The notes under the pieces: model-generated
Database searches by the model: none
What the model was told of the DNA's origin: nothing
Seen by the model: the letters and a program-made list of their open reading frames with translations, nothing else
Shown here: piece after piece, positions 20,188 to 37,975 of the stretch
Layout: every line of letters begins with the position of its first letter
Numbering within the stretch: the stretch's first letter is position 1
Program-made: the position numbers and the translations under genes
Source: Natrinema gari JCM 14663
GTDB taxonomy: Archaea; Halobacteriota; Halobacteria; Halobacteriales; Natrialbaceae
DNA: 64,000 nt
Assembly (NCBI RefSeq): GCF_000337175.1
Contig: NZ_AOIJ01000033.1
Coordinates: 1-64,000, forward strand
Reading direction: 5' to 3'

Positions 20188-20240
20188 GGCCAGCGCGGGT
20201 GCGCCGTGCGCGTGAGAGTGAAGACGAATCCCGGACGCGG

Positions 20241-21248: not shown

Positions 21249-21432
21249 CGGCTCTGCCTCCGTCTCGGCACGCGAATCGTGGATCGCGCTCTCATCACCA
21301 TCCACCGCGTCACGCACTCACATAAAACTGTAGCGTTTCCATCCAGTCGCACGCGCGACCGATCGCAGGCCGGCGACGGGTCGGTCGTCACAGCGCCGGC
21401 GACCCGCTCGAGGCGACCCACCAACCGCGTGG

Positions 21433-23160
21433 CTACAGTTCCGTGAGAGCGAGGTCGCCGTCCGGGGTACGATATCGGGCGAGGGTCGACCGCTCGGCAT
21501 CCCGCGGATCCGCGTCCTTGTCGACGCCGTACACGGTGTACGTACAGTGATCACGGGTGAACTCGACGACGGCGTAGCCGTGCTGATGCCAGTCGACGTA
21601 CTCGAGGTGGTCGTTTTGCTCTTTGGTCAATTCCGCGAGCGCGTCGTCGTCCCAGTCACCCGGGAAATCGATCACGTCGGCGGCGTTGACGCTTGTAACG
21701 GCGGGAGTCATCAGTTCGACGCCGATCCGGTCGTACGTCTCGAGCGGCTCGATCTCGCCGTAGCCGGCTTTCACGTGGCCGGCAAGCGACGCGTGGAGGT
21801 CGCCGGTCAGGACGACGAAGTTGCGCGGATCGACATCCGCGACGTGTTGCATGAGTTCCCAGCGTTCGTGCTGGAAGCCGTCCCACGAGTCGTGGAGCAG
21901 TTCGATCTGTGACCAGTTATCGCCGATGGTCAGGGGCATCGTCAGCACTTCGTTGGCCCAGACCGACCAGACGGCGTCGGACTCAGTGAGCCACTCCTTG
22001 AAATACTGTTTCTGTTCGCGGCCGAGCATCGTCCGCCCCTGTGCTTCCTCTTCCGTGCAGGTGATCCGTGCGTCGCCGCAGGGCGGGCCATCGCGATACA
22101 GTCGTTCGTCGGTGACGGTCAGATCGACGAGGTCGCCGAACTGGAGGTCCCGCCACAATCGGAGCTGGTCCTGCAGTGCCGACTCGTTCGGATCGAACTC
22201 GACGCGGGCGGGAACGTACTCGACCCACGCCTGAATGCCGTCGGCCGTGATCTCCATCGCCCGCTCCGGCTGCTCGCCGCCGTCCGTATCCGGCAGCACC
22301 GGCGCGTTCGCTTCGTCGTCCCAGTATCGATTGTTCCCGATTTCGTGGTCATCCCAGCCGTGAATAACCGTGTGTTGCTCGAGTCCTTCTTGGAGGAATT
22401 CGTTCCCCTTGTAGGTCCGATACAGCGTCCGGAAGTCGGCCAGGGACTCGGCCAGCGCAGCGCCGCTGGGGAGGTCGATGTCGCGCCCGTCCGTGATATC
22501 CGTCGTCGGCGAGGTGTAGGCACCGTCGGCGGATTCGTAGATGAAATCGCCGAGGTGGACGACGAAGTCGACGTCTTCGGCCGCGATGTGGCGGTAGGCT
22601 CCGTAGTAGCCGTTCTGGTAGTCCTGACACGTAAGGACCGCAAACGACAGCGAATCGGGGCTCGCGCCGGCCGCCGGCAGCGTCCGACAGCGACCGGTTC
22701 GGGTCGCGACGCCGTCGTAGACGAACCGATAGTAGTAGCGCCGATCCGACTCGAGAGCCCCGTCGAGGTCGACTTTGACCGTGTAATCGTGTGCACTCGA
22801 GAGTCGGTCGGCGGGGACCGTTCCCTCGTACACCGCATCCTCGAAGTCGTCGTCGGTCGCGACCTGGACACCGACCGGCTCCTCGGAGACGACCGCGCTG
22901 GGGGCGATCCGTGTCCAGAGAATAACGCCGCTCGGGGTCGGCCCGCCGCTGGCCACCGATTGCGGAAACGTCGCGTCGGGATCGGCTGCCCCGTCAACGG
23001 CGAAGACGCTCCGATCGGTCGCCGACGCCGCGGCGACCGGCTGGACGATATCGCGCTGAGCGAGAATCGCCGCGAGGCCGCCAGCGACCGAGGTGGTGCC
23101 GATGCTCTCGAGAAAGCCGCGCCGATTCGTCCGGTTCCGTGTGCCATTTTTCTCTGGCAT
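21433..23160 (-). CDS. phoD: Alkaline phosphatase D family (PhoD), Tat-exported
   Basis: A 575-aa secreted phosphatase/phosphodiesterase. The N-terminus has a twin-arginine signal (NRRGFLESIGTTSVAGG). An N-terminal Ig-like PhoD_N domain (DATFPQSVASGGPTPSGVILW) precedes the metallophosphatase core with LTCQDYQNGYYGAYRH, VHLGDFIYE, IHGWDDHEIGNN and VVLTGDLHASLAG. These supply the Cys, Asp, Asn and His metal ligands of the PhoD class. It should release phosphate from esters outside the cell. The upstream region is extremely AT-rich, consistent with a strong or regulated promoter shared with the divergent oxidase gene. Confidence 0.96.
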   Translation of the reverse strand: MPEKNGTRNRTNRRGFLESIGTTSVAGGLAAILAQRDIVQPVAAASATDRSVFAVDGAADPDATFPQSVASGGPTPSGVILWTRIAPSAVVSEEPVGVQVATDDDFEDAVYEGTVPADRLSSAHDYTVKVDLDGALESDRRYYYRFVYDGVATRTGRCRTLPAAGASPDSLSFAVLTCQDYQNGYYGAYRHIAAEDVDFVVHLGDFIYESADGAYTSPTTDITDGRDIDLPSGAALAESLADFRTLYRTYKGNEFLQEGLEQHTVIHGWDDHEIGNNRYWDDEANAPVLPDTDGGEQPERAMEITADGIQAWVEYVPARVEFDPNESALQDQLRLWRDLQFGDLVDLTVTDERLYRDGPPCGDARITCTEEEAQGRTMLGREQKQYFKEWLTESDAVWSVWANEVLTMPLTIGDNWSQIELLHDSWDGFQHERWELMQHVADVDPRNFVVLTGDLHASLAGHVKAGYGEIEPLETYDRIGVELMTPAVTSVNAADVIDFPGDWDDDALAELTKEQNDHLEYVDWHQHGYAVVEFTRDHCTYTVYGVDKDADPRDAERSTLARYRTPDGDLALTEL

Positions 23161-23335
23161 ACGATTGCGATTTCAGAATTAAGTAAAATAATATTATAAT
23201 TTAACTATGTTAGATATTGTTATTATAATTTCAGATACGATGAATATATACGATCGGGTTCACGGAAGTCCCGCGAGAGGGATTGCGTGCGAACCAGTGG
23301 GAAACGTTGATATTGTTAGTTACTAACGAACACAC
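23161..23335. promoter_or_regulatory. AT-rich divergent promoter region (phoD / GlcD-type oxidase) with an inverted repeat
   Basis: A 175-base gap whose 23175-23255 part is far more AT-rich than its surroundings, with several TATA-like stretches on both strands. The dyad GTTAG-TTA-CTAAC at 23315-23327 ends 8 bases before the oxidase ATG, and GATATTGTT near 23309-23317 is a possible TATA for that gene. It is a plausible operator, perhaps phosphate-responsive; that link is inference from the phosphatase neighbour. Confidence 0.5.
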
Positions 23336-24763
23336 ATGACACACGATTGCTCGTTTCTCGAGGATCTCCCCCTCGCGACCGACCGGATTTCCGTCGCGGA
23401 CGGGCGGCGGGAATCGCACGCGACCGACTACGGGGCGGAGCGAATCGACGACGGGGGCGTGCTCCCGGACGCCGTCGTCTGGCCAGCGTGTACGGCCGAC
23501 GTGTCCGCGGTGGTGGCCGCCGCGACCGACCGCGGCGTCCCGGTGACGCCCTACGCCGCGGGGACCGGGCTCGAGGGCAACGCCGTCCCCGCACACGGCG
23601 GTATCAGCCTCGATCTCACGCGGATGGACGGGGTCGTCGACTACCGGCCCGCGGACCGTCAGATCGACGTCGGACCGGGGATCATCGGGTCGGACGTCGA
23701 CGAGTACGTCGCCGGGGACGGTCTCTTTTTCCCGCCGTTGCCCTCCTCGGGCGATATCTCGACGATCGGCGGGATGATCGCGACGGACGCCAGCGGAATG
23801 CAGACGGTCCGATACGGCGAAGTCGCCGACTGGGTGCTCGGTCTCGAGGCGGTACTGGCCGACGGCACCGTCATCGAGACGGGCTCGCGGGCGAGCAAGA
23901 CCTCAAGCGGCTACAACCTGACCGATCTCATCGTCGGCAGCGAGGGCACGCTGGCGGTCGTCACCGAAGCGACGCTTGAACTCGCCGGCCGACCCGAACA
24001 GGTTCGCGGCGGACGAGCCATCTTCGAAACCCTCGACGACGCCGTGGAGGCCGTCTTCGACGCGGTCCGGACCGGCGTCGGCGTCGCCAAAATCGAACTC
24101 GTCGACGGACTGAGCGCGACCATGGCGAACGCGTATCTCGGGAGCGACCTGCCCGATGCGCCGATGGTCTTCCTCGAGTTCCACGCGAATCACGGCATCG
24201 AGACGGAGATCGATCTCTGCCGGATGATCTTCGAGGACCACGCTGTCGGTCGCTTCGAGATGAGCGACGACGACGCCGAGATGGCCGCCCTCTGGCAGGC
24301 CCGCCGGGAGCTGGCCTATGCGATCTCGGCGTACGATCCCGATCTCGAGCCGATCCATCCCGGCGACGTGACGGTCCCGATCAGTTCCTACCCCGAGATC
24401 GTCCGCGAGACGAAGCGCCTCGCCGACGAGTACGACCTCCTTGTCCCCTGTTTCGGGCACGCGGGCGACGGCAATCTCCACTACAGCGTCCTCGCCGATC
24501 CGGACGACCCCGAGCAACGCACCCGCGGCGAGGACCTGTACCGGGAGATCGTCGCCCTCGCGATCGAACTCGGCGGGACCGCGACGGGAGAACACGGCAT
24601 CGGCGCGGGAAAACAACGCTTCCTCGAGCCGGAGCACGGGGCCGGGGCTGTCGAGGCCATGCGGGCGGTGAAACGTGCACTGGACCCGACAGACACGCTC
24701 AATCCGGGGAAGATCTTCCCCGAAACGGCCGACGGCGAGCGGCTCACCGAGGCGGAGCGGTGA
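23336..24763 (+). CDS. glcD: FAD-binding oxidase, GlcD/D-lactate dehydrogenase family
   Basis: A 475-aa flavoprotein of the vanillyl-alcohol-oxidase/PCMH superfamily. The FAD pyrophosphate loop is VTPYAAGTGLEGNAVPAHGGISLDL, followed by PPLPSSGDISTIGGMIATDASG and LTDLIVGSEGTLAVVTEATLEL. The C-terminal cap ends with CFGHAGDGNLHYSVL and TGEHGIGAGKQRFL, whose His residues are typical for D-2-hydroxyacid oxidases. It probably oxidises glycolate, D-lactate or a similar 2-hydroxyacid. No FeS partner (GlcF) is encoded alongside, so the electron acceptor is unknown. Confidence 0.93.
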   Translation: MTHDCSFLEDLPLATDRISVADGRRESHATDYGAERIDDGGVLPDAVVWPACTADVSAVVAAATDRGVPVTPYAAGTGLEGNAVPAHGGISLDLTRMDGVVDYRPADRQIDVGPGIIGSDVDEYVAGDGLFFPPLPSSGDISTIGGMIATDASGMQTVRYGEVADWVLGLEAVLADGTVIETGSRASKTSSGYNLTDLIVGSEGTLAVVTEATLELAGRPEQVRGGRAIFETLDDAVEAVFDAVRTGVGVAKIELVDGLSATMANAYLGSDLPDAPMVFLEFHANHGIETEIDLCRMIFEDHAVGRFEMSDDDAEMAALWQARRELAYAISAYDPDLEPIHPGDVTVPISSYPEIVRETKRLADEYDLLVPCFGHAGDGNLHYSVLADPDDPEQRTRGEDLYREIVALAIELGGTATGEHGIGAGKQRFLEPEHGAGAVEAMRAVKRALDPTDTLNPGKIFPETADGERLTEAER

Positions 24764-24864
24764 GCGTGGCTGGACCGCTCGAGTCGTGCTCGAGCGGCGA
24801 ACGGCTCGCTGATCACTCGTTCGGCCACCGATAGTTTACGTCTCGCGTCGCATCACGTTCGATA

Positions 24865-25725
24865 ATGAACCGTCGAGAGTTCCTCTCGAGTGCCTGTCTC
24901 GCCGGCACCGCCGTCGTCCCCACGACCGGGTCGGCCGACGCCGGCGACGGTGCCCTCACGGTCGAGGTCATCCGTCACGAGTCGGTCTCCGCGACCGACG
25001 GTGCGATGCGTGCTATCGTCGACGGAGCGACCCTGTTCGCCGACACGTGGACGGACGCGACCGCGGGGACGGCAACGGTAACGATCGACGAGGAGTCGGT
25101 CGCTGACTTCGGGATTTCGGCGTCACACACCGCGACCCTCGATGCGATCGAGGACGCCGGGCTTCGACCCGACCGGACGCCCGAAACGATCACGGTGTTC
25201 GTCATCGGGGACGGGAGGACGTCCGCAGGTGCGATGCGATCCTACGCGGGACACGACGGGGGAGGTGACGGCGAACCCGGTGCGTACGGCTACGTCAACA
25301 CCGAAATCGTGTCCGGACTCGGATTCGGTATCGGGACGCCCGAGGATTTGCGGCGGAACTTCGCCGCACACGAGTGTGGCCACGCGGTCATCGGCTGGGC
25401 CGACTTCCCACACTATCCGGCTGACGCGACCGCAGACGATCCCTCGCCGGTGGTGCGGGCACACAGCTGTGGCGCACAGGACCATCCCGACGCGAGCGGC
25501 TGGCTCACCCACCACGGGATCACCGTGATGGCCACGGGCTATTCGGCACGGGAAAGCCGAAACACGCCGCGGAACCACCAGTTTGCGACCCAGCAAGGAG
25601 CGATCGACGACACCGCTGACCCTGTCGACGAATCGTGGTCCGTCCTCAACATGGATTACGTCGCCGCGTTCTCGGACACGTCTCGAGCCGTAATGAGCGA
25701 CCACTATCGCCAGTTCCTCTCGTAA
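24865..25725 (+). CDS. Tat-exported putative zinc metalloprotease (HECGH motif)
   Basis: A 286-aa secreted protein. MNRREFLSSACLAGTAVVP is a twin-arginine signal with likely cleavage after the SADA segment. The mature part has a zincin-like motif AAHECGHAVIGW, with HExxH at about 169-173, preceded by a strand-turn region (YGYVNTEIVSG) as in metzincin-type folds. His and Cys residues in VRAHSCGAQDHPD and the THHGITVMATGY turn downstream could supply a third zinc ligand and a Met-turn. It is encoded 101 bases after the oxidase gene. I cannot assign a named peptidase family, so activity is predicted only from the motif. Confidence 0.7.
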   Translation: MNRREFLSSACLAGTAVVPTTGSADAGDGALTVEVIRHESVSATDGAMRAIVDGATLFADTWTDATAGTATVTIDEESVADFGISASHTATLDAIEDAGLRPDRTPETITVFVIGDGRTSAGAMRSYAGHDGGGDGEPGAYGYVNTEIVSGLGFGIGTPEDLRRNFAAHECGHAVIGWADFPHYPADATADDPSPVVRAHSCGAQDHPDASGWLTHHGITVMATGYSARESRNTPRNHQFATQQGAIDDTADPVDESWSVLNMDYVAAFSDTSRAVMSDHYRQFLS

Positions 25726-25799
25726 CCTGTGGATCGGGACGGGCATCGACACCGATGCGTGGCCCGATCCGATACCGACGGCCGTAGCGCGGCCGGGAC

Positions 25800-27488
25800 T
25801 CAGTCGTGGACGAGCACGTCGAGGACGTCCGGCCCCTCGCGAGCGAGTGCCGCCTCGAGCGCGTCCTCGATTCCGTCGGGCGTCTCGACCAGTTCGGCAC
25901 GCGCACCGTGGCTCTCGGCGTTTTTCACCAGATCGACTGCGGGATCGAAGTCCATTCCGACGAACTCGTAGTCCGATTCCTCGCCGCCCATAATGTGCAG
26001 CGTGTTGTCTTTCAGGATCCGGTAGTTGCGGTTGTCCGAGATGACGACCGTCAGGTCCAGCCCGTAGCGAGCGGCGCTGTAGATCGAGTGGGGATAGTAC
26101 TGGTAGGACCCGTCACCGATGAAGCCAACCACGTCGCGGGGCTCGTCGCGTTGTGCCTCGGCGACGGCGGCACCGACCGCCGCCGGTAACCCGTACCCGA
26201 GACCGCCGCCCTTGTTCGAGATGTACTGCTCCGGCGCGAGATCCCACCGCGTCAGCATGGCGTACTTCGAGGTGACACCCTCGTCGACGATCGCGGCGTC
26301 GCCCGCGACTCGCTCCATCGCGTCGACCAACTGGACTTTCGAGGCCCGTGGGTCGTCCCCTTCGGCTTCGCCGGAGCCGGCCATCCGGGTCTCGACCATC
26401 TCCTTGACTTCGGCGACTCCCTCGAGACGATCGGCGACGACGTCCTCGGAGAGCCTCGTTTGGACGCGCTCGGCGATGTCCTGCATGACGAGCCCCGGGT
26501 CGCCGATCACGGCCGCGTCGGCGGGCTGGTTCTTCCCGACCTGCCAGCTGTCGTCGGAGAGGTGGATGCAGGTCGTGTCGGGATCGACCAGTGCCTCCTC
26601 GTGGCGGGTCAGCGTCGTGTTCGTTGAACAGCCCGCGAAGCAGATCGTATCGGTATCCATCAGCATCGCGGCCAAGTCCCCGTTGGTCGGCAGGTAGGAG
26701 ACCCACTGCTCATGGCCGGTCGGGAAGTCCACCTCGCAGGCGAGGATCTCGCCGTGGACGCGGGCCCCCGTCGCCTCCGCGAGGCCAACCGCCGCGGCGA
26801 CGGCGTCAGCCCCGGAGCGGGCAACGTGATCGCCGACGACCAGTACCGGTTCGTCGGCCTCGGCCAGCAGGTCGGCCGCGCGCTCGAGTTGGCCGGGATC
26901 GCCGCTGCCGGCGCTGGGAATCGGGCCCAGTCGTTCGGGCTCGGCGTCGGTCTCCGCGAGCATCACGTCCAGCGGGAGACCGAGGAAGACCGGACCCGTC
27001 GGCGGCGTCATCGCGACCCGGAACGCCCGTCGGAGCATCGTCGGCAGGGCTTCCACGTTCAGCACTTCGTCGGACCACTTACAGAACGCACGAGCCATGT
27101 CGGCCAGCCGACCCGAGAGGATCGGCTCCTCGTGGCGGAAGTCGGTGCTGTGGTTGCCCGCGGTCACGACCAGCGGCGCGCCGGCGATCTTGGCCGCATA
27201 GAGGTTTCCCAGCCCGTGGGCCAGCCCCGGCGCGATATGGAGGTTCGCCACGCCGACCGGCGTGATCGAGTCGTCGTGATGGGCGTGGTAGCGACGCCGC
27301 TGGGCGTAGCCGCCAGCCATCCCGACCGCGATGTCCTCGTGGAGCCCGAGGCGGTACTCGAGGTCGCTGTCGCCGATCGCGTCCATGATCGGCAGTTCGG
27401 TCGTCCCCGGATTGCCGAAGACGTAGTCGACGCCGTAGGCCTCCAGAGCGTCAGTGAAGAGATCCGCGCCGGTATATTCGTCCGTCAT
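25800..27488 (-). CDS. Thiamine-diphosphate enzyme (benzoylformate decarboxylase/acetolactate synthase-like)
   Basis: A 562-aa three-domain ThDP enzyme. The N-terminal domain starts TGADLFTDALEAYGVDYVFGNPGTTELP and contains the cofactor-activating Glu in GLHEDIAVGMAGGYA. The middle domain resembles the FAD/nucleotide-binding fold of this family. The C-terminal domain has the ThDP motif VGFIGDGSYQYYPHSIYSAAR ending in ISDNRNY. Conserved EGVTSKYAML and GGGLGYGLPAAVG support a benzoylformate-decarboxylase-like 2-oxoacid decarboxylase. The substrate is not determined. The start at 27488 (MTDEYTGADLF) is preferred over a longer frame. Confidence 0.85.
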   Translation of the reverse strand: MTDEYTGADLFTDALEAYGVDYVFGNPGTTELPIMDAIGDSDLEYRLGLHEDIAVGMAGGYAQRRRYHAHHDDSITPVGVANLHIAPGLAHGLGNLYAAKIAGAPLVVTAGNHSTDFRHEEPILSGRLADMARAFCKWSDEVLNVEALPTMLRRAFRVAMTPPTGPVFLGLPLDVMLAETDAEPERLGPIPSAGSGDPGQLERAADLLAEADEPVLVVGDHVARSGADAVAAAVGLAEATGARVHGEILACEVDFPTGHEQWVSYLPTNGDLAAMLMDTDTICFAGCSTNTTLTRHEEALVDPDTTCIHLSDDSWQVGKNQPADAAVIGDPGLVMQDIAERVQTRLSEDVVADRLEGVAEVKEMVETRMAGSGEAEGDDPRASKVQLVDAMERVAGDAAIVDEGVTSKYAMLTRWDLAPEQYISNKGGGLGYGLPAAVGAAVAEAQRDEPRDVVGFIGDGSYQYYPHSIYSAARYGLDLTVVISDNRNYRILKDNTLHIMGGEESDYEFVGMDFDPAVDLVKNAESHGARAELVETPDGIEDALEAALAREGPDVLDVLVHD

Positions 27489-27583
27489 GCTCGCTCGTGG
27501 CACGGCACACCACATCAAATTGAGTGTTTCGGAACCGTAGCGCCTGCCCCGGGTATTATCCGTCAGTTCGTTGTCGTCCCGGT

Positions 27584-28444
27584 ATGGCCCTCGCGAGAGA
27601 CGGGACGGGGTCGGGCACGATCGCTCGAGCGTACTGGTCCCAGGTCCATCCCGTCTTCATGACGCCGCCGATCGCCGCGTCGCTGTTCGGGGCGATCCTC
27701 GCGGGGAACGTCGATCCGGTTCTCGCAGCGGTCCACGTCCTCGCGATGTTCGCGGCGGTCTACACGGCCCACGTCAAGGACGGCTACGTCGACTTCTACG
27801 TCCGCGGGGAGGACGACGACCACCCGCTGACCGAACGCGGCTGTCGGCTCGGGCTCGCGGCGTCGACGGCGACGTTCGCGGGCTGTTGTCTCCTGCTCGC
27901 GGCGCTGGTCGATGCCCTCGTGCTGGCGGTCGTCGTCCCGACGTGGCTGATCGCCTACTACCACGCACCGCAACTCGACACGAACCCAGTGACGGCGACG
28001 ACCGGCTACCCGCTGGGCATCGCCCTCTCCGTACTCGGTGGGTTTTACGTGCAGGCGGGAACGATCACCGTCGTCCCGCTCGGATTCGCCGGCGTCTTCC
28101 TCGCGTTGCTCTCCGGGGTCAAGGTGATCGACGACGCACAGGACTACACCTACGACCGGTCGATCGAGAAGCGAACCGTTGCGGTGGCGGTCGGCCCCAG
28201 TCGTGCTTACGATATCGCGTACGGGTTGATGGCCGTCGCGTTGGCGGCCGTCGTCGTCTTCGCCGTCGCTCGCGTCTTCCCGCTGACGGCGCTGCTCGCT
28301 GCGCTGGCCTTCGCTGCAGTCGCCGCCGTCGCGCGGCGGGCCGGTCCCGAACTCGCGACCATGTTGCTCGTTCGGGGTTCCTACGTCTTCCTCGCCGTCC
28401 TCGTGGCCGCGGTTCGGTTCGATCCTCTTGGGAGTCTTATGTGA
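27584..28444 (+). CDS. UbiA family prenyltransferase
   Basis: A 286-aa polytopic membrane protein with about eight helices. The two Asp-rich motifs of UbiA enzymes are present in modified form: AHVKDGYVDFYVRGEDDDHPLT in the first cytoplasmic loop, and VIDDAQDYTYDRSIEKRTVAV in the second. These bind Mg-pyrophosphate. The family transfers isoprenyl chains to aromatic or glycerol-phosphate acceptors in quinone, heme or archaeal lipid synthesis; which acceptor applies here is unknown. It is divergent from the ThDP enzyme with 95 bases between starts. The ATG at 27584 opens the domain (MALARDGTGSG). Confidence 0.85.
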   Translation: MALARDGTGSGTIARAYWSQVHPVFMTPPIAASLFGAILAGNVDPVLAAVHVLAMFAAVYTAHVKDGYVDFYVRGEDDDHPLTERGCRLGLAASTATFAGCCLLLAALVDALVLAVVVPTWLIAYYHAPQLDTNPVTATTGYPLGIALSVLGGFYVQAGTITVVPLGFAGVFLALLSGVKVIDDAQDYTYDRSIEKRTVAVAVGPSRAYDIAYGLMAVALAAVVVFAVARVFPLTALLAALAFAAVAAVARRAGPELATMLLVRGSYVFLAVLVAAVRFDPLGSLM

Positions 28445-28479
28445 ACAACCCGTTCGGACTATCGTACTCTCGAGAGGGG

Positions 28480-28728
28480 CTATATCGATCGCCGGTAGCC
28501 ACATCTCGGACAGTACATCGTGTCGTCCTTAATGAGCGTGTGACTCTCGTCACAGTGTCCGCATAAACAGCCGATGGAGACGCCAACTTCCCGTGCGAGC
28601 CCGGCCAGCGTGTTCTGTAATTGCTGCTGGCGACGCTCCGTCGCCTCGAGTCGATCGGTGAGGACGGCCAACTGTGCCGTCGTTCGCTTACGATTGGGAT
28701 CGGAAACACGGGTTGGACGGGGCGTCAT
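28480..28728 (-). CDS. Small zinc-ribbon protein with coiled coil
   Basis: An 82-aa protein. Residues about 18-48 form a charged heptad-like helix (LAVLTDRLEATERRQQQLQNTL), probably a dimerising coiled coil. The C-terminal half has CLCGHC, then CPRCGYRRS, four or five cysteines suited to a zinc ribbon. Such small haloarchaeal zinc proteins are often regulatory or RNA/DNA binding, but no partner is indicated. The TATA-like GACTATTTGCTC segment lies upstream around 28751-28762 on its strand. Confidence 0.7.
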   Translation of the reverse strand: MTPRPTRVSDPNRKRTTAQLAVLTDRLEATERRQQQLQNTLAGLAREVGVSIGCLCGHCDESHTLIKDDTMYCPRCGYRRSI

Positions 28729-28882
28729 AGTCGATATAGGTCGACAGTGAGCAAATAGTCATCTCTACCCGACAGCCGTTGTGAGACTCCGGCCGGATGG
28801 CTATCGCCCCTCAGTGACGACTCTGCTCGCGATCCCAGATAGTGCGACCTGATTCACACGTTATCGGACAGAGTAGCGTCGC

Positions 28883-28904
28883 TACGGGTGCAATACCACC
28901 CGTA
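28883..28904. repeat. 8-bp perfect stem-loop
   Basis: TACGGGTG (28883-28890), six-base loop CAATAC, CACCCGTA (28897-28904). A compact hairpin in the gene-free stretch. A second short hairpin, CGTGG-AAA-CCACG, follows at 28950-28962. Confidence 0.6.
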
Positions 28905-29209
28905 CACAAGTATCAGAGAAACGGAGTGGGTCTGTCAATGGTAGCCACACGTGGAAACCACGCGGGCTGAAAGGTGCTGGCTGACCGTGCCGACTACCAC
29001 CTACTCTCTTCCATCGGCACAAACACCTCCAGTACTCAGTTGAGATGAGGCGGGACCGAGCGTGTGACTCGTACCGACCGGAGCGTATCACGTAAATAAT
29101 GCACTGTGGACAGTTTTACGTATCCGTATGAACAAGGCGAGCGGTTCACCTCCGGAACGAGGTAAAACTCCGTGACGGCGACTTTTTAGCCTCATCAAAA
29201 TCGTTAAGC

Positions 29210-29230
29210 GTTCTGATTAGCACTCAGAAC
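29210..29230. repeat. 7-bp perfect stem-loop with a nearby third copy of one arm
   Basis: GTTCTGA (29210-29216), seven-base loop, TCAGAAC (29224-29230). The arm GTTCTGA occurs again at 29238-29244, so two alternative pairings are possible, which is reminiscent of a switchable RNA or repeated protein site. Confidence 0.55.
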
Positions 29231-29257
29231 ACATTGCGTTCTGACGGCATCAACGGG

Positions 29258-29311
29258 TTTTGCCGGGGGGTGAGGCTGGCGTCGCAGACATCAACAGATT
29301 CCCCGGCAAAA
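29258..29311. repeat. 11-bp perfect inverted repeat
   Basis: TTTTGCCGGGG at 29258-29268 and its exact reverse complement CCCCGGCAAAA at 29301-29311, separated by 32 bases. Each arm is preceded by a related CATCAACRG sequence (29248-29256 and 29290-29298). The unit is large enough for a stable RNA stem or the ends of a tiny non-autonomous element. Confidence 0.65.
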
Positions 29312-29518
29312 GAGGATCTAAGCAGAGCTTTCAAAAAGCGAGTCCGAGAATCGAACTACGCCTCTCAGCCTACACAGACTGAAGGATCTCCACTACCCCA
29401 ACTCGGACACGCGGACACTGCACCTCTTGTTATCACGGTCATCTGATTACAGGCCAGGATGGTTTTCAGGTGATGAAGTAGAAGTTAATTCTAGATAGAT
29501 GATAGTTTGTTGTTCCCC

Positions 29519-30652
29519 CTATTCGGAGTTGCCGTCGGATTCTTCATCTCCTATGGCCTGTTTATACCGGTAATAGAGTGACCGCATGGTCCGATCCGCA
29601 TCACGACTCATGAGGACAGTCACGTCGTTTCGGTCAGCAAGCGCCTCCTGCACCGGAGTAAATACGAGGTCCCAAAGCCCGGATTTCCGTTCGGGCGAAC
29701 CAATAGACGTGAAGTCATGGTTCTTTGCTTCCTGGATGATAACGTCAGCCGGGTCAGTTGCTTCCCTCAGTTCCGTCTCCGACTCAGCGTCAGAGCCAAG
29801 CACGAACTCCGCAAACTTCAGCAGTCCCTTCGCGTCATTCCACTTCTTACTAGATGCATCCGGTGGGATAACGTGCAGGACCGTAACTGAAGCATTGGAT
29901 GCTCGAGCTACCGCACGAGCCGCCTCTGAAGCAAGCGCTGCATGCGGTCCGGTTCCTACTGGAAGCAGTATCGAATCGATCGTTTTGGCCACCGGTTCTG
30001 ATAGAGAAGCGACAGTGTGGTCTTCGATATCCGGAACGTATAATGCGTCCGTCCCTTCTTGAACGCCAACGTTTTCTACAAACACGTCACAGTTTGCCTC
30101 CTCGATCACTGTCTCAATCATGTTTTTTCCGAGCAACCAGCTTTTGTCGAACCCGGTTCCCTGAAGGAGGAGTACAGCTGTTTCACTTCTGCCAGCGAGA
30201 GCGTCGAGAATACCCTGTGTCGTATTCGTCACCGTCTGTACCGTAGCGCGTACGGGCACGTTCGGATTAATCTCTCCTGCAATGGATACCACCTGCGCTA
30301 ACTGGCTTTGACGTTCTATGACGAGTTCTGGAGCCGACTGCTCTTGACCTTCTGCCATGCCTCCTAAAGAAGCGTACTCTCGTATCTGTTTGAGCGTGGC
30401 TTTATCATCCACCTCTGCAATTCCTAGCAGAACGACTCGACCGTCGTTATCCGCTGCCAAGGCTATTGCAGTCTGAAGGAACCGACGAGCGTTGATTCCA
30501 GCACTGCTATCAAGCGGATCGTCGATAACAGGTACTACGATGGAGTAATCAGGCTGATGGATAACTTCCCCGTCGTATCCATACGCGTCCACCTCCGACT
30601 CCGACGACGGCGCTGGCGCTGTGATCGGGACATCAGGAGAACTGTTCGACAT
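29519..30652 (-). CDS. Universal stress protein with two Usp domains
   Basis: A 377-aa protein made of two UspA-like alpha/beta domains (about residues 35-195 and 220-350) after a disordered Pro/Ser N-terminus. Domain 1 begins DYSIVVPVIDDPLDSSAG; domain 2 begins DSILLPVGTGPHAALASEAAR and has VTVLHVIPPDAS. The GxxG ATP-loop is modified in both (for example SIGSPERKSGLWD). Its ATG overlaps the stop of the upstream trkA-like gene by one base, so the two are translated together; it probably tunes the K+ uptake system, as Usp proteins near transporters are thought to do. Confidence 0.85.
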   Translation of the reverse strand: MSNSSPDVPITAPAPSSESEVDAYGYDGEVIHQPDYSIVVPVIDDPLDSSAGINARRFLQTAIALAADNDGRVVLLGIAEVDDKATLKQIREYASLGGMAEGQEQSAPELVIERQSQLAQVVSIAGEINPNVPVRATVQTVTNTTQGILDALAGRSETAVLLLQGTGFDKSWLLGKNMIETVIEEANCDVFVENVGVQEGTDALYVPDIEDHTVASLSEPVAKTIDSILLPVGTGPHAALASEAARAVARASNASVTVLHVIPPDASSKKWNDAKGLLKFAEFVLGSDAESETELREATDPADVIIQEAKNHDFTSIGSPERKSGLWDLVFTPVQEALADRNDVTVLMSRDADRTMRSLYYRYKQAIGDEESDGNSE

Positions 30653-31320
30653 CAGTATGACCTCGTGAATGCATCCGTGATTTGGTCACTCGCACCGTTT
30701 TTAGCGAACATCGTCACGGTGTCGCCTGCTTGGATGGCTGATTCCCCGCGCGGAATGAGCAGTTCACCATCCCGCACTATCGCTACGATAACCGTCTCTT
30801 GGGGAAGGAGGCCCTCCGAGTCGGCGTTGATCAGACTGAGTCCGGCGATTGGAGCGTCCGCCTCCACGGTCAACTCAAATATTTCGGCACCACCGCCGAC
30901 TTCCATGAAATCCCGGATAGCGGGCCGTTGAACAGTCCGGTAGAGATACTGCCCGTTGAGTTCGTGCGGGCTTTCGACGATGTTCACGCCGAGATCACCG
31001 AACAGATCCATATGTTGGGGATCGTTGATCGAACTCACGAGCGTCTCGACACCGTACTGTTTGCCGAGCATGGAGATCATGAGATTTACTGAGTCGTTCT
31101 CCGTCGTGGAGATGAGTGCGCTAGCCTCCTCCACACCCGCTTCGAGGAGTATCTGCTTGGAGGCAGCGTCAGCGTTGATGACCATGCAGTCGTACGTTGC
31201 GCTCACCTTTTCGGCGAGGTCTTGGTCTCGTTCGATGACGACTACCTCGTGATCGTCTTGGGTCGCTAATTCGATGACTTTGCTTCCGGTGCGGCCTGCG
31301 CCGACAACGATGATGTACAT
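30652..31320 (-). CDS. trkA: TrkA-like K+ uptake regulatory subunit (second copy)
   Basis: A 222-aa protein with an RCK N-terminal NAD-binding domain (MYIIVVGAGRTGSKVIELA, glycine motif GAGRTG, then VVVIERDQD) and a C-terminal TrkA_C domain (AEIFELTVEADAPIAGLSL). It forms the cytoplasmic gating ring on TrkH and senses nucleotides. The start at 31320 is used because the RCK strand begins there and an AT-rich promoter lies about 25-30 bases before it. It has its own promoter after a 124-base gap from trkH, and is coupled to the downstream Usp gene. Confidence 0.93.
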   Translation of the reverse strand: MYIIVVGAGRTGSKVIELATQDDHEVVVIERDQDLAEKVSATYDCMVINADAASKQILLEAGVEEASALISTTENDSVNLMISMLGKQYGVETLVSSINDPQHMDLFGDLGVNIVESPHELNGQYLYRTVQRPAIRDFMEVGGGAEIFELTVEADAPIAGLSLINADSEGLLPQETVIVAIVRDGELLIPRGESAIQAGDTVTMFAKNGASDQITDAFTRSY

Positions 31321-31334
31321 TGGGATTTGCAAGG

Positions 31335-31352
31335 TATGTCTGATAATTGATA
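31335..31352 (-). promoter_or_regulatory. Probable promoter of the trkA-usp pair
   Basis: On the minus strand this segment reads TATCAATTATCAGACATA, an AT-rich box 15-32 bases upstream of the ATG at 31320 within the 124-base trkH-trkA gap. It suggests that trkA-usp is a second transcription unit rather than a simple tail of the trkH operon. Confidence 0.45.
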
Positions 31353-31444
31353 GACGGTGCTAGCAGGTGATCCTGAACGGCGCGGTGGTGGTCCAGGAAC
31401 GTCGAGAACTGGCTTACTGGAAGGGATCAAGTAGTGCATGTGGA

Positions 31445-33088
31445 TCACCGCCTGACGATGCTGTTTATCAGGACGAGGACTGGAACGATTTCGAGCCGCC
31501 CCATCCACATCTGGAGGATGAACAGACTCTCCGCGATGACCGGCATTTCCGGCCCGGTGAGTCCGGCGGAGAGGCCGACGGTCCCCTGTGCGGTCGCCAC
31601 CTCGAAAATCGCGTCCGCGAGCGTGAACTCCGACGGCAGAACCGTCAAGAGCACGAACAGCGAGGCGGTTAACAGGAGCAGATAGATGAACGCGAAGGTC
31701 GCCGCAGCCCGAATCTCGTCGTTCGCTTCGTCAACTGTGAACGTCCGCTGGCCGATTCGGAGATCCTGGATCGCGTGTCGTGGGAGGAACACGCGAGAAA
31801 CCTCCCAGCGGAGTCCACGACCGATGATGTAGCCACGAATAATCTTGATCCCTCCGACCGTCGCACCAGCGCACCCACCGATCAGCATCGCTCCGAGGAC
31901 GATGGACATGACCGCTCCGTCGTTCCAATTGCCGATGGCAGACGTCTGCCATCCGGTGGTCGTCTGTGCACTGATGAACTGGAACAGGCCGTCGCGGAAC
32001 GCCTGACTCGTCGCTACTCGTCCGATGTACCCTATTGGGTCACCGTCGTATGGAACACCGACCCACCGGGCGAGAAACGCCGTCAAGACGACGACACCGA
32101 CGGCGAACATCCCGAATAGCATCCGAACCTGAGGATTACGAGTAAAGTCTCGAATATTTCGCTCGGAGAGGACTCCCCAGTAGACGGGAATCGAGATCGC
32201 TCCCGTAACCATCGCAGGAATATGAATGAGTTCCATCGCATAGGAGTTGTAACCCGCAATGGAATCATCGAGCGTACTGAATCCGCCGGTAGACTGGCCG
32301 GTCATCGCGTGATTGATCGCGTCGAAGAGCGTGTTTTCGATGCCGTATCCGGGTTGGACGAGGAACGTTGCCACCACGAGATACACCGCCACAGCTGCGG
32401 TCACCCCGACGTAAACCTTCCAGATCGCTCGTGCGGTCCCGACGATGCTGGGGCGGAGTTTCTCGCTCCGTCCCTCCGACTGATACAGTGAAATCCCCGC
32501 CGTCCCGTGGGGCTGTCGAAGGATCGCCAGGGACAGGACGATCATTCCTGCACCGCCGATCCACTGCATCTGCGAGCGGTACCAGAGGAAGCCGTGTCCG
32601 ACCGACGGCTCTCGGACGCTCATCGTCAGTCCCGTTGTGGTATACCCGCTCATGCTCTCGAAGAACGCGTGCAGCGGATTCCGGAAGTACAGGAGACTCG
32701 AGTGGTAGTTCGATCCAGCGGGAACGAAGGACTCGAGGACCACCGGTGGTGTAATGTAGGCCGCGATGACGAACGGGAGCGCGCCGAAGAACGCTGTCAC
32801 GGCCCAGCCGAGCGCCGCGACGATCATGGCATGATGTCGTTGCGGTTCGGGGGCGTCTTCGCTCAGTTTGTACGCGCCTCCACCGACGAGTACAGTGATT
32901 CCTGCTGCGATCAGAAACGCAAGTGCAGTGTACCATTCTTGGTAGAGGAATGCGACGAGCATCGGGACGAGCATTGAGCTGCCGATGAGAACCTGAAGAG
33001 CGCCAACGTCTCTGAAGATCGTTTTCGTAGCTGTCGCAAAGGTGAACCGCCGACCTGCCGATATCGTAGCTGCTTCGTAATCAGACAT
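31445..33088 (-). CDS. trkH: TrkH family potassium transporter
   Basis: A 547-aa membrane protein with about ten helices and four re-entrant P-loops of the SKT family. Filter-region segments seen are ESMSGYTTTGLTM, AINHAMTGQSTGGFSTLDDS, ISAQTTTGWQTSAIGNW and VATAQGTVGLSAG, each carrying the selectivity Gly. An MQWIGGAGMIVLSLAIL segment is typical. It imports K+, the main compatible solute of salt-in haloarchaea. Its ATG lies inside the end of the preceding trkA gene (8-base overlap), so assembly with that TrkA is likely. The region is slightly less GC-rich than its flanks. Confidence 0.95.
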   Translation of the reverse strand: MSDYEAATISAGRRFTFATATKTIFRDVGALQVLIGSSMLVPMLVAFLYQEWYTALAFLIAAGITVLVGGGAYKLSEDAPEPQRHHAMIVAALGWAVTAFFGALPFVIAAYITPPVVLESFVPAGSNYHSSLLYFRNPLHAFFESMSGYTTTGLTMSVREPSVGHGFLWYRSQMQWIGGAGMIVLSLAILRQPHGTAGISLYQSEGRSEKLRPSIVGTARAIWKVYVGVTAAVAVYLVVATFLVQPGYGIENTLFDAINHAMTGQSTGGFSTLDDSIAGYNSYAMELIHIPAMVTGAISIPVYWGVLSERNIRDFTRNPQVRMLFGMFAVGVVVLTAFLARWVGVPYDGDPIGYIGRVATSQAFRDGLFQFISAQTTTGWQTSAIGNWNDGAVMSIVLGAMLIGGCAGATVGGIKIIRGYIIGRGLRWEVSRVFLPRHAIQDLRIGQRTFTVDEANDEIRAAATFAFIYLLLLTASLFVLLTVLPSEFTLADAIFEVATAQGTVGLSAGLTGPEMPVIAESLFILQMWMGRLEIVPVLVLINSIVRR

Positions 33089-33818
33089 CGTTGAAACTGT
33101 TACAGAACTCTTCGGGAATCGATTCTAGATCCGCGTTGCCGTGACCTTCGTACTGTCCGAATACGTCGGTAACTTTGGCCATCGCCCCGGTTTCCGAGTA
33201 GACGGTCAGCCGGTCACCCGAGCGAATGCGAGTAGTGCCTCGGGGGGTGATCGGTTCGCCCTCACCATCGCGTTCGATCGCGACGATGAGAACATCACCG
33301 CCGAGCAAACCGGTGTCGCCCGCCTCGTGAAGGGTCCGATCAGCGATCGGTGCGTCAGGGCCGACATCGATCTCAAACACTTCTGGACGGTCACCGATAC
33401 GCATGTAGTCAACGATCGTCGGACGCTTCACGGCTCGATAGAGGTATTCGGCGATGAGGCGCTGCGGATTCTCTATGGTATTGACGCCGATCCGCTCGAA
33501 GATCCCCATATGTTGAGGGTTATGAACGACCGAAACGACGCCGGGAACCTCCAACCCGGCAGCGAGCAAGCACACCATGATGTTCGTCGCGTCTCGATCG
33601 GTGGTAGAGATCAACGCGTCCGCACGGTTACCCCCCGCGTCGATCAGCGATGATTTCGTCGTCGCATCGGTATTGAGAACCAGACAGTCGTACTCGCTCG
33701 TGATCGTACTCGCCCGCTGGTCGTCGCGCTCGATCACGACGACTTCGTTGCCCGAGCGAGTGTCGATGTCGATGAGCGGCGTTCCGATGCCTCCCGCTCC
33801 GACGATGATGACATGCAT
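33081..33818 (-). CDS. trkA: TrkA-like K+ uptake regulatory subunit (first copy)
   Basis: A 245-aa RCK protein. The NAD-binding domain starts MHVIIVGAGGIGTPLID with the GAGGIG loop and VVVIERDDQRA; the middle has NPQHMGIFERIGVNTIENPQ, and the TrkA_C domain starts VFEIDVGPDAPIADRTL. The C-terminus extends about 20 residues past the domain. It overlaps trkH by 8 bases (ATGTCTGA) and begins one base after the Usp gene, so the three are probably co-translated. It differs clearly from the second copy and may respond to another ligand or form mixed rings. Confidence 0.93.
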   Translation of the reverse strand: MHVIIVGAGGIGTPLIDIDTRSGNEVVVIERDDQRASTITSEYDCLVLNTDATTKSSLIDAGGNRADALISTTDRDATNIMVCLLAAGLEVPGVVSVVHNPQHMGIFERIGVNTIENPQRLIAEYLYRAVKRPTIVDYMRIGDRPEVFEIDVGPDAPIADRTLHEAGDTGLLGGDVLIVAIERDGEGEPITPRGTTRIRSGDRLTVYSETGAMAKVTDVFGQYEGHGNADLESIPEEFCNSFNDV

Positions 33819-33819
33819 T

Positions 33820-34242
33820 TCAGTGATTCACCTCCGCTCCGTCGTGAACAGCGATGACCGGCAGTTCTGCCTCAGTCACAAGCCGGAGCGCTTTATCACC
33901 AGCGAGTAACTGCACGATGCGGTTGCCACCTCGAGGTCGGAACGCGATGGCATCGACCTCCAGTTCGACCGCGAGTTCGTTGATCGCCTTGACAACATCC
34001 GTGGCGTACGTTATTTCCGTCTCGACATTGGGAACGATTTCTCGGAAGGCAGCGAAGGAGTCTTCCGCTCTCGACCGCGCCTGTTCGAGCGGTATCTTAT
34101 CGGGTACGCCGCCACCTTTCTCGACGACGTGAACGACTGTGATCCGGTTATACGGACACTCTTCGAGGGCGGTCGCGGTCGCTCGAGCATCCTCCGCGTT
34201 GGCGACCGGGACGACGAGATGAGCCGTGAGGAAGTGACTCAT
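33820..34242 (-). CDS. Universal stress protein (single Usp domain)
   Basis: A 140-aa single-domain Usp protein: LTAHLVVPVANAEDARATA at the N-terminus, RITVVHVVEKGGGVPDK, and VDAIAFRPRGGNRIVQLLAGDKALRL, which carries a variant of the nucleotide-binding GxxG region. The open frame runs 81 codons upstream, but that stretch overlaps the previous gene and has a non-haloarchaeal composition, so the ATG at 34242 is used. It sits between the unknown first gene and trkA with spacers of 4 bases and 1 base. Confidence 0.88.
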   Translation of the reverse strand: MSHFLTAHLVVPVANAEDARATATALEECPYNRITVVHVVEKGGGVPDKIPLEQARSRAEDSFAAFREIVPNVETEITYATDVVKAINELAVELEVDAIAFRPRGGNRIVQLLAGDKALRLVTEAELPVIAVHDGAEVNH

Positions 34243-34246
34243 TAAA

Positions 34247-34648
34247 TCACGCACCCTCGTTATCGTGAGATATCCCCTCACCGCGGTACTCACACTCGAC
34301 AGTGGATTGCTTCGGAACGTCTCCCAGGAACGTCCAGTGGAGCGTTTCTTCACCGTCCAGTTGCTTCTCACGCCTGACGCTGTAGATGGAGAGCGGTTGT
34401 GTGGATTGCTCAGAACTCTTCTGGGATGGCGGATACTTCCGGACGAGGGTATCTGTTCCACAGTTCTCGATATCGATGATCTCACCCTTCGCCTCCGAAC
34501 GGATCATTTCTCGGAGAGAAGGTCGAAGATCGTCGAGTCGCTGTTCAGCGTACTTACGAACCGCGCGAAGAGTTGGTGCGTCCAACTCGTTGAGGATCTC
34601 AAGGAGTCTATCCGGAGGCTCCTGATCATCTGTCGGTATGCTCATCAC
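34247..34648 (-). CDS. Unknown first gene of the trk operon
   Basis: A 133-aa soluble acidic protein. The N-terminal half looks helical (RLLEILNELDAPTLRAVRKYAEQRLDDL), with a later ENCGTDTLVRKYPP and a WTFLGDVPK segment. No transmembrane helix or known domain is visible. Similar leading proteins are not something I can name. It starts 4 bases of spacer before the Usp gene and about 25 bases after a TATA-like box, so it is the first cistron of the K+ uptake operon and may have a regulatory role; this is inference from position. Confidence 0.7.
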   Translation of the reverse strand: MMSIPTDDQEPPDRLLEILNELDAPTLRAVRKYAEQRLDDLRPSLREMIRSEAKGEIIDIENCGTDTLVRKYPPSQKSSEQSTQPLSIYSVRREKQLDGEETLHWTFLGDVPKQSTVECEYRGEGISHDNEGA

Positions 34649-34668
34649 TCTCCGATCCGCAACGTATC

Positions 34669-34742
34669 GATAAATAATTTCCGCATATTTCTTCTAATCG
34701 TTTGTGTATAGACCATACATATTCTAATCGTTCGATCCAATA
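34669..34742 (-). promoter_or_regulatory. trk operon promoter with paired direct repeats and a dyad
   Basis: TAAATAATT at 34671-34679 is a TATA box 23-31 bases before the ATG at 34648. Upstream, the 11-base sequence TTCTAATCGTT occurs twice, at 34692-34702 and 34732-34742, exactly 40 bases apart. Between them lies a dyad, TGTAT-AGACC-ATACA (34705-34719). The upstream arrangement looks like a regulator-binding platform, perhaps for an osmotic or K+ signal. Confidence 0.55.
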
Positions 34743-34881
34743 TATCACTTCGTACAGACAGTAGAACGCCGTTTCACCGCCATACGTTAGCTACTTGATA
34801 GAGTTTATCGACATGGAAATGATCGATAAAGTCGAGAATATTAAAGGAAGATTGGGAACCAATTCTCGAATATAAGAATGA

Positions 34882-35116
34882 ATGAAGGAATCGATGGAAC
34901 CGACGAGCGAATTCTCTAAAGAGAAGGAATACTTCTGCCCGTACGCACAGTTTGGTCCAAAGGATGAGGAGGCGACATCACCCGTCACAGGTGTCGCAGG
35001 GCTGGCTGGTGCCGCCGACGTAGTCGAAGTAATCGTGAAGGACGATGCGCCTATCGCTGGCAAAACACTCAAAAAGGCAAATGGAGAAGGTCTGATCGCG
35101 TCCGGCATACTGCACG
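34882..35116 (+). pseudogene. TrkA_C domain remnant
   Basis: A frame from an ATG at 34882 reads, from about residue 45 on, AADVVEVIVKDDAPIAGKTL and KKANGEGLIASGILHV, which is the start of a TrkA C-terminal (RCK_C) domain. The preceding 45 residues (including YFCPYAQFGPK) do not look like the RCK NAD domain. After HV the frame degenerates into Arg-rich sequence, where an unrelated acetyltransferase begins in another frame. It is best read as a truncated copy of a trkA gene, near the live trk locus. Confidence 0.65.
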
Positions 35117-35494
35117 TCCGAACTGAACGAACTCGACGCGGACGTAACCGACGGACCCATCGAAGACGCCTTCCCCACTCACCTCAACGAAGAAGACATC
35201 ACCGACTCCCTCATCGTCCACGATGGTGAGACTTTCGGCTTCGTCACGCTCTGCGAGGGTCACATCTTACCCGGAAATACTCGCAGTACCTCCATATCGT
35301 GAATCTCGCTATCGACGGGGGTGAGCAGAATCAAGGCCACGGGGCGGCGGTCGTCGAAGTATGAAAGAACTCGCTCGCGAGGGTGTGACGACCTCAAATC
35401 GCCCTGCGGATGACAGATTAAGGGCGCACGCCGGTTCTACCGCAACGCGGACTTGCAACCTAGGCAAGCCGACTACGTACAGCCGCTAGAGTAA
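35117..35494 (+). pseudogene. GNAT acetyltransferase pseudogene, multiply frameshifted
   Basis: One frame encodes SELNELDADVTDGPIEDAF and NEEDITDSLIVHDGETFGFVTL. Near 35275 the homology shifts frame to KYSQYLHIVNLAID and NQGHGAAVVEV, the acetyl-CoA loop, then hits TGA. It resumes with MKELAREG, shifts again (CDDLK), and ends GARRFYRNADLQPRQADY before TAA at 35492-35494. All parts appear in the right order for one acetyltransferase, with at least three frame changes, so it is inactive. Confidence 0.8.
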
Positions 35495-35551
35495 GTAGAA
35501 GTACGCCGGTCTATCTGGTCGCTCCAAACACCGATAAAATCTGGCCATGTA

Positions 35552-36730: not shown

Positions 36731-36872
36731 GCTCTGGCGTAGCGCCGTCGACAGGAATTGTCTTTCGATTCGACCGGTGCCGATCGCCGCGAGCGACGCG
36801 GTCGCAACGAGGGAACGGTCCTGAGACTGGCGAGCGCGCGTCTGCAACCCGACGAATCGAACCGAGAAGGAG

Positions 36873-37604: not shown

Positions 37605-37975
37605 GGCACGCGCTACCACTCGACAATACTTAATGCTTGGCCGAGCGACACCCGTGGGCTGTGCTCCGCGGAGCGGATGAGGGGTCGGTCAGAACACGAC
37701 GGGGCGGAGGTCCGACTGAAAGCGGCGCTTCGATGGGCCTGACTGAAGACGACAACTAGTACAGGCGGGGGGACTTCTCCCGGAGGGGCATCCACTCGAT
37801 ACGTGAGATGAGTGGTGCCCCGGTCGCCGGCGGCTCCGCCCATCGGCTCCTCGAGCGGTCCGCCGATCCGACCACGGCAGTCACTTCCCGCGCCGACTGA
37901 CGGTCGTCGTCTGGCTCCCGTGTTCGAGTGTTGTGATCGACTTCTCGCGGACGGATCGCGGCCGCCGTCGGGAGA
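37605..37975. other. Intergenic region, nothing recognised
   Basis: About 370 bases between two minus-strand genes. Apart from an AT-rich ATACTTAATG stretch at 37625-37634, suitable as promoter of the HTH-GNAT gene, I see no gene, RNA or notable repeat. Confidence 0.4.

What the first reader, a model, noticed from the sequence alone, without database searches (positions are those of the whole stretch)
28729..29518. Structured gene-free stretch with four perfect inverted repeats
Within about 430 bases there are stems of 8, 5, 7 and 11 bp, a third copy of one arm allowing alternative pairing, and related sequences before both arms of the longest repeat. No protein frame fits. This may be a structured non-coding RNA, a regulatory RNA of the adjacent K+ locus, or a tiny mobile element.
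Basis: seen in the sequence. Interest (0 to 1): 0.55.

Follow-up and report, generated by a model that had tools for sequence, protein, structure and literature searches.

The report
Decayed copy of haloarchaeal small RNA
The gene-free stretch is a mosaic: a worn-out copy of a structured RNA gene found in many salt-loving archaea but absent from the RNA-family catalogue, beside the edge of an inserted potassium-transport island that carries a small repeat element and a broken tRNA-like gene.

Summary
The inverted repeats are real and exceed chance, but they are not one structure. The stretch is three unrelated things side by side in a Natrinema-group genome. (1) Window 28889-28998, minus strand, is a copy of an unnamed ~110-nt RNA. 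A covariance model finds it in 122 of 392 sampled genomes of the order (34 of 95 genera), one copy in 118 of the 122, and in none outside the order among 392 sampled across the phylum. It has a conserved promoter-like box on the minus strand, G-U wobbles that fit only the minus strand (92 cells against 14), two-sided changes in 9 of 23 pairs, and no Rfam match. The window copy is degenerate; an intact second copy lies elsewhere in the same genome. (2) From ~29036 to ~35551 runs a Usp-TrkA-TrkH-TrkA-Usp island that three relatives lack at this place. (3) At its left edge lie a dispersed palindromic repeat (29137-29315, holding the 11-bp stem) and a broken tRNA-His-like gene (29340-29410). The RNA belongs to the backbone, so a K+ regulator is not supported. 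Most likely it is a trans-acting small RNA; its target and any expression remain unshown.

The parts
28889..28998 (-). degenerate copy of the conserved ~110-nt structured RNA (5' end near 28998, 3' end near 28889)
   Evidence: matches model R1 at 90.1 bits and R2 at 94.3 bits, E 1.5e-20; 23-sequence genus alignment
   Evidence: helix 3 of the pair count
29018..29036 (-). promoter-like box of the RNA (TACCGGAGGTGTTTTRTA in relatives), altered here to TACTGGAGGTG-TTTGTG
   Evidence: 98 aligned upstream regions
28883..28904 (.). 8-bp perfect inverted repeat at the 3' end of the RNA copy; not conserved in relatives
29036..35551 (.). island absent from this place in G020, G023 and G028; lower G+C (about 0.45-0.62) than the flanks (mostly 0.62-0.72)
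   Evidence: (flanks 34 and 51 bases apart in G020 and G023, about 700 in G028)
29258..29311 (.). 11-bp perfect inverted repeat with 32-base loop, part of the dispersed repeat
29340..29410 (-). broken tRNA-His-like gene; about 6 bases lost between T arm and acceptor 3' strand; not called by ARAGORN
   Evidence: 87% identical to G000:C51:74080-74160
29519..30652 (-). universal stress protein gene, first gene of the island
   Evidence: PF00582
30652..31332 (-). TrkA-type K+ uptake subunit
   Evidence: PF02254/PF02080
31445..33088 (-). TrkH-type K+ channel subunit
   Evidence: PF02386
33081..33818 (-). second TrkA-type subunit
   Evidence: PF02254/PF02080
33820..34485 (-). second Usp gene (the start is uncertain)
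   Evidence: PF00582
35552..36847 (-). backbone GTPase gene that lies directly upstream of the RNA in relatives without the island
   Evidence: PF08438/PF01926/PF02824; synteny
28480..28728 (-). backbone small zinc-ribbon-like ORF downstream of the RNA (Pfam match just below its cut-off)

Best explanation
The stretch is a junction between chromosomal backbone and an inserted K+ transport island. On the backbone side lies a decaying copy of a small structured RNA gene whose relatives carry their own promoter-like box and read from the minus strand. In intact copies the RNA should start near GTAGACGG and fold into a long hairpin: an invariant outer stem (GRCGG/CCGTY), an internal loop (CAC against UAMN), a second stem, a large loop with a nearly invariant CCUUUC on its 5' side, and an apical hairpin; a short 3' hairpin (GAGC...GCU) follows. 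The mechanism I think most likely is that it works in trans as a small regulatory RNA and offers the unpaired CCUUUC tract and the pyrimidine-rich 3' tail to messenger RNAs or to an RNA-binding protein. One working copy per genome suffices; this genome keeps an intact copy at G000:C82:16339-16447 while the window copy, whose upstream side now faces the island, has lost conserved bases. The 7- and 11-bp repeats belong to a dispersed palindromic element and the third piece is a broken tRNA-like gene; neither is part of the RNA. Shown by computation: composite structure, conservation, strand, fold, promoter-like box, degeneracy, island. Inferred: transcription, trans action, the role of the CCUUUC loop, and that redundancy and/or the insertion caused the decay.
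For: Conservation: 56 of 125 family genomes (R1), 67 of 243 order genomes (R1), 122 of 392 order genomes and 34 of 95 genera (R2); exactly one copy in 118 of the 122. 70 stretches in the named genome collection match an exact three-block pattern and all are titled as haloarchaea. Fold: on 78 sequences 93.0% of cells pair against 90.6% in shuffles, 9 pairs have two-sided changes against 4.0 (1 of 500 shuffles reached 9), and sliding the partner drops pairing to 33-48%. Strand: 92 G-U cells against 14 A-C cells. Promoter-like box at a near-fixed distance upstream in 98 aligned copies, the window's included. Not a leader: downstream gene co-oriented in 32 of 70 loci, opposite in 32, none found in 6; upstream gene co-oriented in 48 of 70, 34 of them within 200 bases. 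Degeneracy of the window copy: 7 changes at columns invariant in all 22 other genus copies, next highest 3; intact copy in the same genome 131 bits against 90. Island. In G023 the same locus keeps only the RNA's 3' tail, while an intact copy sits elsewhere.
Against: No transcript was seen; nothing here shows expression. Presence is patchy: 270 of 392 order genomes had no hit; 23 genomes negative in earlier searches, re-searched with laxer filters, gave only weak hits (best E 0.009; the two best look like chance matches in coding sequence). Helices 1 and 4 show no two-sided changes, and helix 4 is weak. Related sequences inflate shuffle tests. The window copy does not fold unusually well by itself (z -1.1, against -4.4 for the intact copy), and across all 78 sequences it is only third in changes at nearly invariant columns. 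No pairing with 23S rRNA better than shuffled queries (one genome), no association with Cas1 (39 genomes hold both against 40.8 expected, p 0.73), and no mRNA target was searched. The island could in principle have been lost from the three relatives rather than gained here.
Confidence: 0.7

Rival explanations
1. The conserved element is a housekeeping or RNA-modification guide (H/ACA-like or otherwise) rather than a regulator.
For: Nearly always single copy with its own promoter-like box; a hairpin with internal loops. Haloarchaeal H/ACA hairpins are reported as conserved but separated by a long spacer (PMC2584109, section 24 read).
Against: Missing from most order genomes (270 of 392), which does not suit a housekeeping part. 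No fixed ANA box after the stem, and no C box, in the alignment (by inspection). No 23S pairing better than shuffled queries, tested in one genome.
Confidence: 0.1
2. It is a protein-binding or RNA-binding part of an accessory system (defence, toxin-antitoxin, mobile genetic element), which explains patchiness and changing neighbours.
For: Patchy, single copy, many different neighbourhoods; presence and loss at one locus within a genus.
Against: No constant protein partner nearby; no association with Cas1 (39 shared genomes, 40.8 expected); none in the viral contigs scanned with an exact pattern.
Confidence: 0.2
3. 28889-28998 and 29137-29315 form one long structured RNA with the K+ genes as its target.
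For: They lie within 430 bases beside Trk genes.
Against: An insertion boundary near 29036 separates them; each occurs alone elsewhere; relatives have the RNA at this place without the K+ island.
Confidence: 0.03
4. The conserved block acts as DNA (a protein-binding or recombination site) and is not transcribed.
For: Several blocks are nearly invariant in sequence.
Against: Paired positions change together and G-U is tolerated on one strand only, 92 against 14 cells; a promoter-like box stands at a near-fixed distance.
Confidence: 0.07

Closest known systems
Haloferax volcanii intergenic sRNAs (e.g. sRNA132, H225.2R, s479)
   Same: small intergenic RNA genes of haloarchaea; trans regulation is the inferred mode
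   Different: passages of PMC3956466 say 22 of 27 tested are confined to H. volcanii and only 3 occur in more than 10 genomes; the RNA here is in 122 of 392 order genomes.
22 function-unknown ncRNAs shared by several Halobacteria species in the halite community (PMC7002113, passages read)
   Same: expressed intergenic RNAs found in several Halobacteria genomes, not in Rfam
Methanosarcina mazei sRNA154/sRNA162 (mechanism recalled; papers seen only in search listings)
   Same: works like: structured archaeal sRNA with conserved single-stranded loops, acting in trans (recalled)
   Different: the model hits only the window's own order; no relationship of sequence was tested
MITE/REP-type dispersed palindromic repeats (for part 29137-29315)
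   Same: short, non-coding, palindromic, several copies in unrelated intergenic places
   Different: no terminal inverted repeat or target duplication was shown and no source transposon identified

Membership tests
any Rfam 15 family (for 28889-28998) | score at or above the family's gathering threshold | tested here: not met
   none in the window; at E up to 10 only a weak 15.7-bit AaHKsRNA22 match elsewhere in the stretch; loci with intact copies L003, L071, L091, L101, L107, L147 have no match over the RNA at E up to 1
H/ACA guide RNA | conserved ANA box a fixed distance after the stem | tested here: not met
   by inspection of alignment A5 the bases after CCGTC vary in sequence and length
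H/ACA guide RNA | guide pocket complementary to rRNA | tested here: inconclusive
   23S of one genome only; best duplexes no better than shuffled queries; 16S and tRNAs not tested
C/D box guide RNA | C box RUGAUGA and D box CUGA | tested here: not met
   the consensus has no TGATGA (by inspection)
riboswitch / 5' leader | constant co-oriented downstream gene | tested here: not met
   downstream gene co-oriented 32, opposite 32, none found 6, of 70 loci; neighbour families differ
trans-acting archaeal sRNA | own transcript | not testable with these tools
   promoter-like box only
trans-acting archaeal sRNA | regulated target | not tested
   no genome-wide mRNA target search was run
MITE (for 29137-29315) | several copies in unrelated places | tested here: met
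   21 of the 22 loci given to one search match; flanking genes mostly unrelated
MITE (for 29137-29315) | terminal inverted repeats and target-site duplication | tested here: inconclusive
   aligned ends show no clear inverted repeat; empty sites not compared
tRNA-His (for 29340-29410) | intact cloverleaf | tested here: not met
   ARAGORN finds none in the window or in L001; alignment shows a deletion

The most novel reading that the evidence does not exclude
The RNA is the founding member of an order-wide class of haloarchaeal regulatory RNA: a single-copy gene with its own conserved promoter that keeps fold and core sequence while changing chromosomal neighbourhood, and that is replaced copy for copy (gain at one locus, decay or deletion at the old one), as a stand-alone global regulator or accessory ribonucleoprotein would be.
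Probability: 0.3. Interest if true: 0.8.

Novelty: new member of a known kind. Interest (0 to 1): 0.55.

Why it matters
Haloarchaeal small RNAs have been described as poorly conserved (3 of 27 tested in more than ten genomes, PMC3956466, passages read), which makes function hard to infer. An RNA with a defined fold, a near-fixed promoter-like box and one copy in most of the 122 of 392 sampled genomes that hold it gives a gene that can be deleted cleanly and compared between genera, and conserved loops to mutate. The window also shows a natural decay of one copy while an intact second copy remains.

Tried and rejected
Rfam at gathering and relaxed thresholds: no family for the RNA. sigma-70-type promoter and intrinsic terminator scans: no excess over shuffles (not the right promoter type for archaea). 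Idea that the promoter-like box is shared with rRNA or other stable RNAs: the genome-wide pattern gave 10 sites against 3 for the reversed control, but no Rfam RNA other than one CRISPR repeat and no tRNA near them, the best-scoring site lies inside an ORF, and the sequence upstream of the 16S gene in this genome did not show the box; dropped. rRNA guide idea: negative in one genome. Link to CRISPR: PF01905 was too rare to use (3 of 392); Cas1 showed no association (39 genomes with both, 40.8 expected, p 0.73). Transposase beside the dispersed repeat: nearest ORFs of 21 loci were looked at by eye in the script output, none looked like a transposase, and no family search was run on them. Viral copies of the RNA: none in viral contigs by exact pattern. 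PHROGs for four proteins of the island and one neighbour: none. Literature: eight answered searches listed no paper whose title or abstract start names this RNA; passages of four papers were read (PMC2584109, PMC3956466, PMC7002113, PMC5892119); papers outside the library were not seen, and supplements could not be read.

Rows dropped: six weak matches on the opposite strand of strong ones were left out of the later alignments, as were the two weakest copies (L137, L138); 3 of the 102 loci L071-L172 (L073, L115, L172) were not given to that call because of its limit; redundancy filtering kept 78 of 98 sequences. The genus alignment uses one locus per copy (L050, L051 and L052, larger pieces of the same places, were left out).

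Full report
What is in the stretch. Searching the 790 bases against the own genome and 28 genus relatives split the stretch at once into separately distributed pieces: query 181-311 (window 28909-29039) in most genus genomes, query 402-587 (29130-29315) as a dispersed repeat, and query 605-697 (29333-29425) matching tRNA-His-like genes.

The insertion boundary. Aligning window 20001-40000 to the same region of three relatives shows 25800-29023 and 35551-36743 both matching G020, with only 34 bases between them there; in G023 the gap is 51 bases and in G028 about 700. The window therefore holds about 6.5 kb extra, from about 29036 to 35551, with lower G+C and the genes Usp, TrkA, TrkH, TrkA and Usp. 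Gain here is the simpler reading; loss in three relatives is not excluded. The exact ends and any duplication were not settled.

The conserved RNA. On the backbone side, 23 genus sequences align over about 110 nt with long invariant blocks. Model R1 from these found the element in 56 of 125 family genomes and 67 of 243 order genomes. A second model R2, from 78 non-redundant sequences, found it in 122 of 392 order genomes, 34 of 95 genera, with exactly one copy in 118 of the 122; exceptions are G000 (2), G041 (3), G042 (2) and G323 (2). In a sample of 392 across the phylum all 23 positive genomes belong to the same order. An exact three-block pattern hit 70 stretches among named genomes, all titled as haloarchaea, including Natrinema, Haloterrigena, Natronococcus, Haloferax, Halosimplex, Natronomonas, Halorussus, Halolamina and Halobaculum, and none among viral contigs. 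Absence is largely real: 23 genomes negative in earlier searches, searched again with laxer filters, gave a best E of 0.009, and the two best hits look like chance matches in coding sequence.

Strand and fold. In the 78-sequence alignment, 93.0% of cells pair (shuffled mean 90.6%, 0 of 500 shuffles as high), 9 of 23 pairs show changes on both sides (shuffled mean 4.0, 1 of 500), and the covariation score is 0.138 against 0.095; sliding partners by 1 to 3 columns drops pairing to 33-48%. The clearest pair goes from A-U (49 sequences) to G-C (18). Helices 1 and 4 have no two-sided changes. G-U cells number 92 when read on the minus strand and 14 when read on the plus strand. Ninety-eight upstream regions (the window's among them) carry a conserved TACCGGAGGTGTTTTRTA-like box about 27 bases before GRCGG on the minus strand, about the distance expected of an archaeal TATA element (recalled). 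The intact copy of this genome folds at z -4.4, the window copy at -1.1. Neighbours differ between genera and the downstream gene is co-oriented in 32 loci, opposite in 32 and not found in 6 of 70; the upstream gene is co-oriented in 48 of 70. The element thus looks like a stand-alone small RNA gene that often sits just after a co-oriented gene, not a leader.

The window copy is decaying. It differs at 7 columns that are invariant in all 22 other genus copies (next highest 3), including the GAGC of the 3' hairpin, a base of the CCUACC side of the internal loop, the outer stem and the TATA-like box. Across the 78-sequence alignment, where far more distant copies are included, it ranks third in changes at nearly invariant columns. 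The same genome has an intact copy at G000:C82:16339-16447 (131 bits against 90). G020 and G028 have one copy each, intact, at the window's locus; G023 kept only the RNA's 3' tail there and has its intact copy elsewhere. Copies are therefore gained and lost while, where present, nearly always one remains. The decay may follow from redundancy, from the insertion directly upstream of the promoter, or from both; the order of events is inference.

The other two pieces. The dispersed repeat occurs in 12 of 29 genus genomes counting this one (counted, matches of 50 bases or more), in a long and a short form that differ by an internal palindromic block. Flanking genes are mostly unrelated between copies; two pairs of loci share long flanks, i.e. 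are the same insertion in related genomes. No clear terminal inverted repeats were seen, so its class is open. In the window it is degraded and is the only copy in the genome. The tRNA-like relic at 29340-29410 (minus) is 87% identical to a tRNA-His-like gene at G000:C51:74080 and 83% to the tRNA-His gene at G000:C58:45178; a deletion of about 6 bases merges T arm and acceptor strand, and ARAGORN does not call it.

What it does. Expression and targets are not shown. A trans-acting small RNA is the most economical reading: single copy, own promoter-like box, nearly invariant unpaired CCUUUC, no constant neighbour. A guide RNA is less likely (patchy; no C box; no fixed ANA box by inspection; no 23S pairing better than shuffles in the one genome tested). 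A part of an accessory system is possible; no link to Cas1 was found (39 genomes with both, 40.8 expected, p 0.73).

Against what is known. No Rfam family matches. Passages of PMC3956466 report that 22 of 27 tested H. volcanii sRNAs are confined to that species and three occur in more than ten genomes; sequences of those three were not available here. Passages of PMC7002113 mention 22 conserved, function-unknown intergenic RNAs of Halobacteria without sequences in the text. So this RNA may already have been seen as an unnamed transcript; the searches listed under Tried and rejected found no paper that names it.

Noticed in passing
L002:1497-1570 (G000:C51), also L010, L011, L012, L013, L016, L018, L019, L020, L021: A second, tRNA-His-like gene conserved at one place in the genus, with an unusual anticodon loop (CC-TGTGCA-GG; ARAGORN reads a four-base anticodon gtgc, or gtgt in L013) and an extra base in the T stem; it lies between peroxiredoxin-like and prephenate-dehydratase-like genes (names recalled from the sequences). 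Rfam's tRNA model did not report it at E up to 1 in the two loci scanned, L002 and L010.
   Followed up: partly
window 34880-35550: The right end of the island holds what look like broken pieces of genes (a TrkA-C-like fragment at 34882-35229 without a Pfam match) in low-G+C DNA.
   Followed up: no
L246:2262-2291 (G000:C85): A CRISPR-DR24 repeat reported once in the 3-kb locus scanned, thus possibly a stand-alone repeat.
   Followed up: no
   Followed up: no
L052:7120-7230 (G023): The window's locus in G023 keeps only the 3' tail of the RNA: a deletion scar of the gene.
   Followed up: partly
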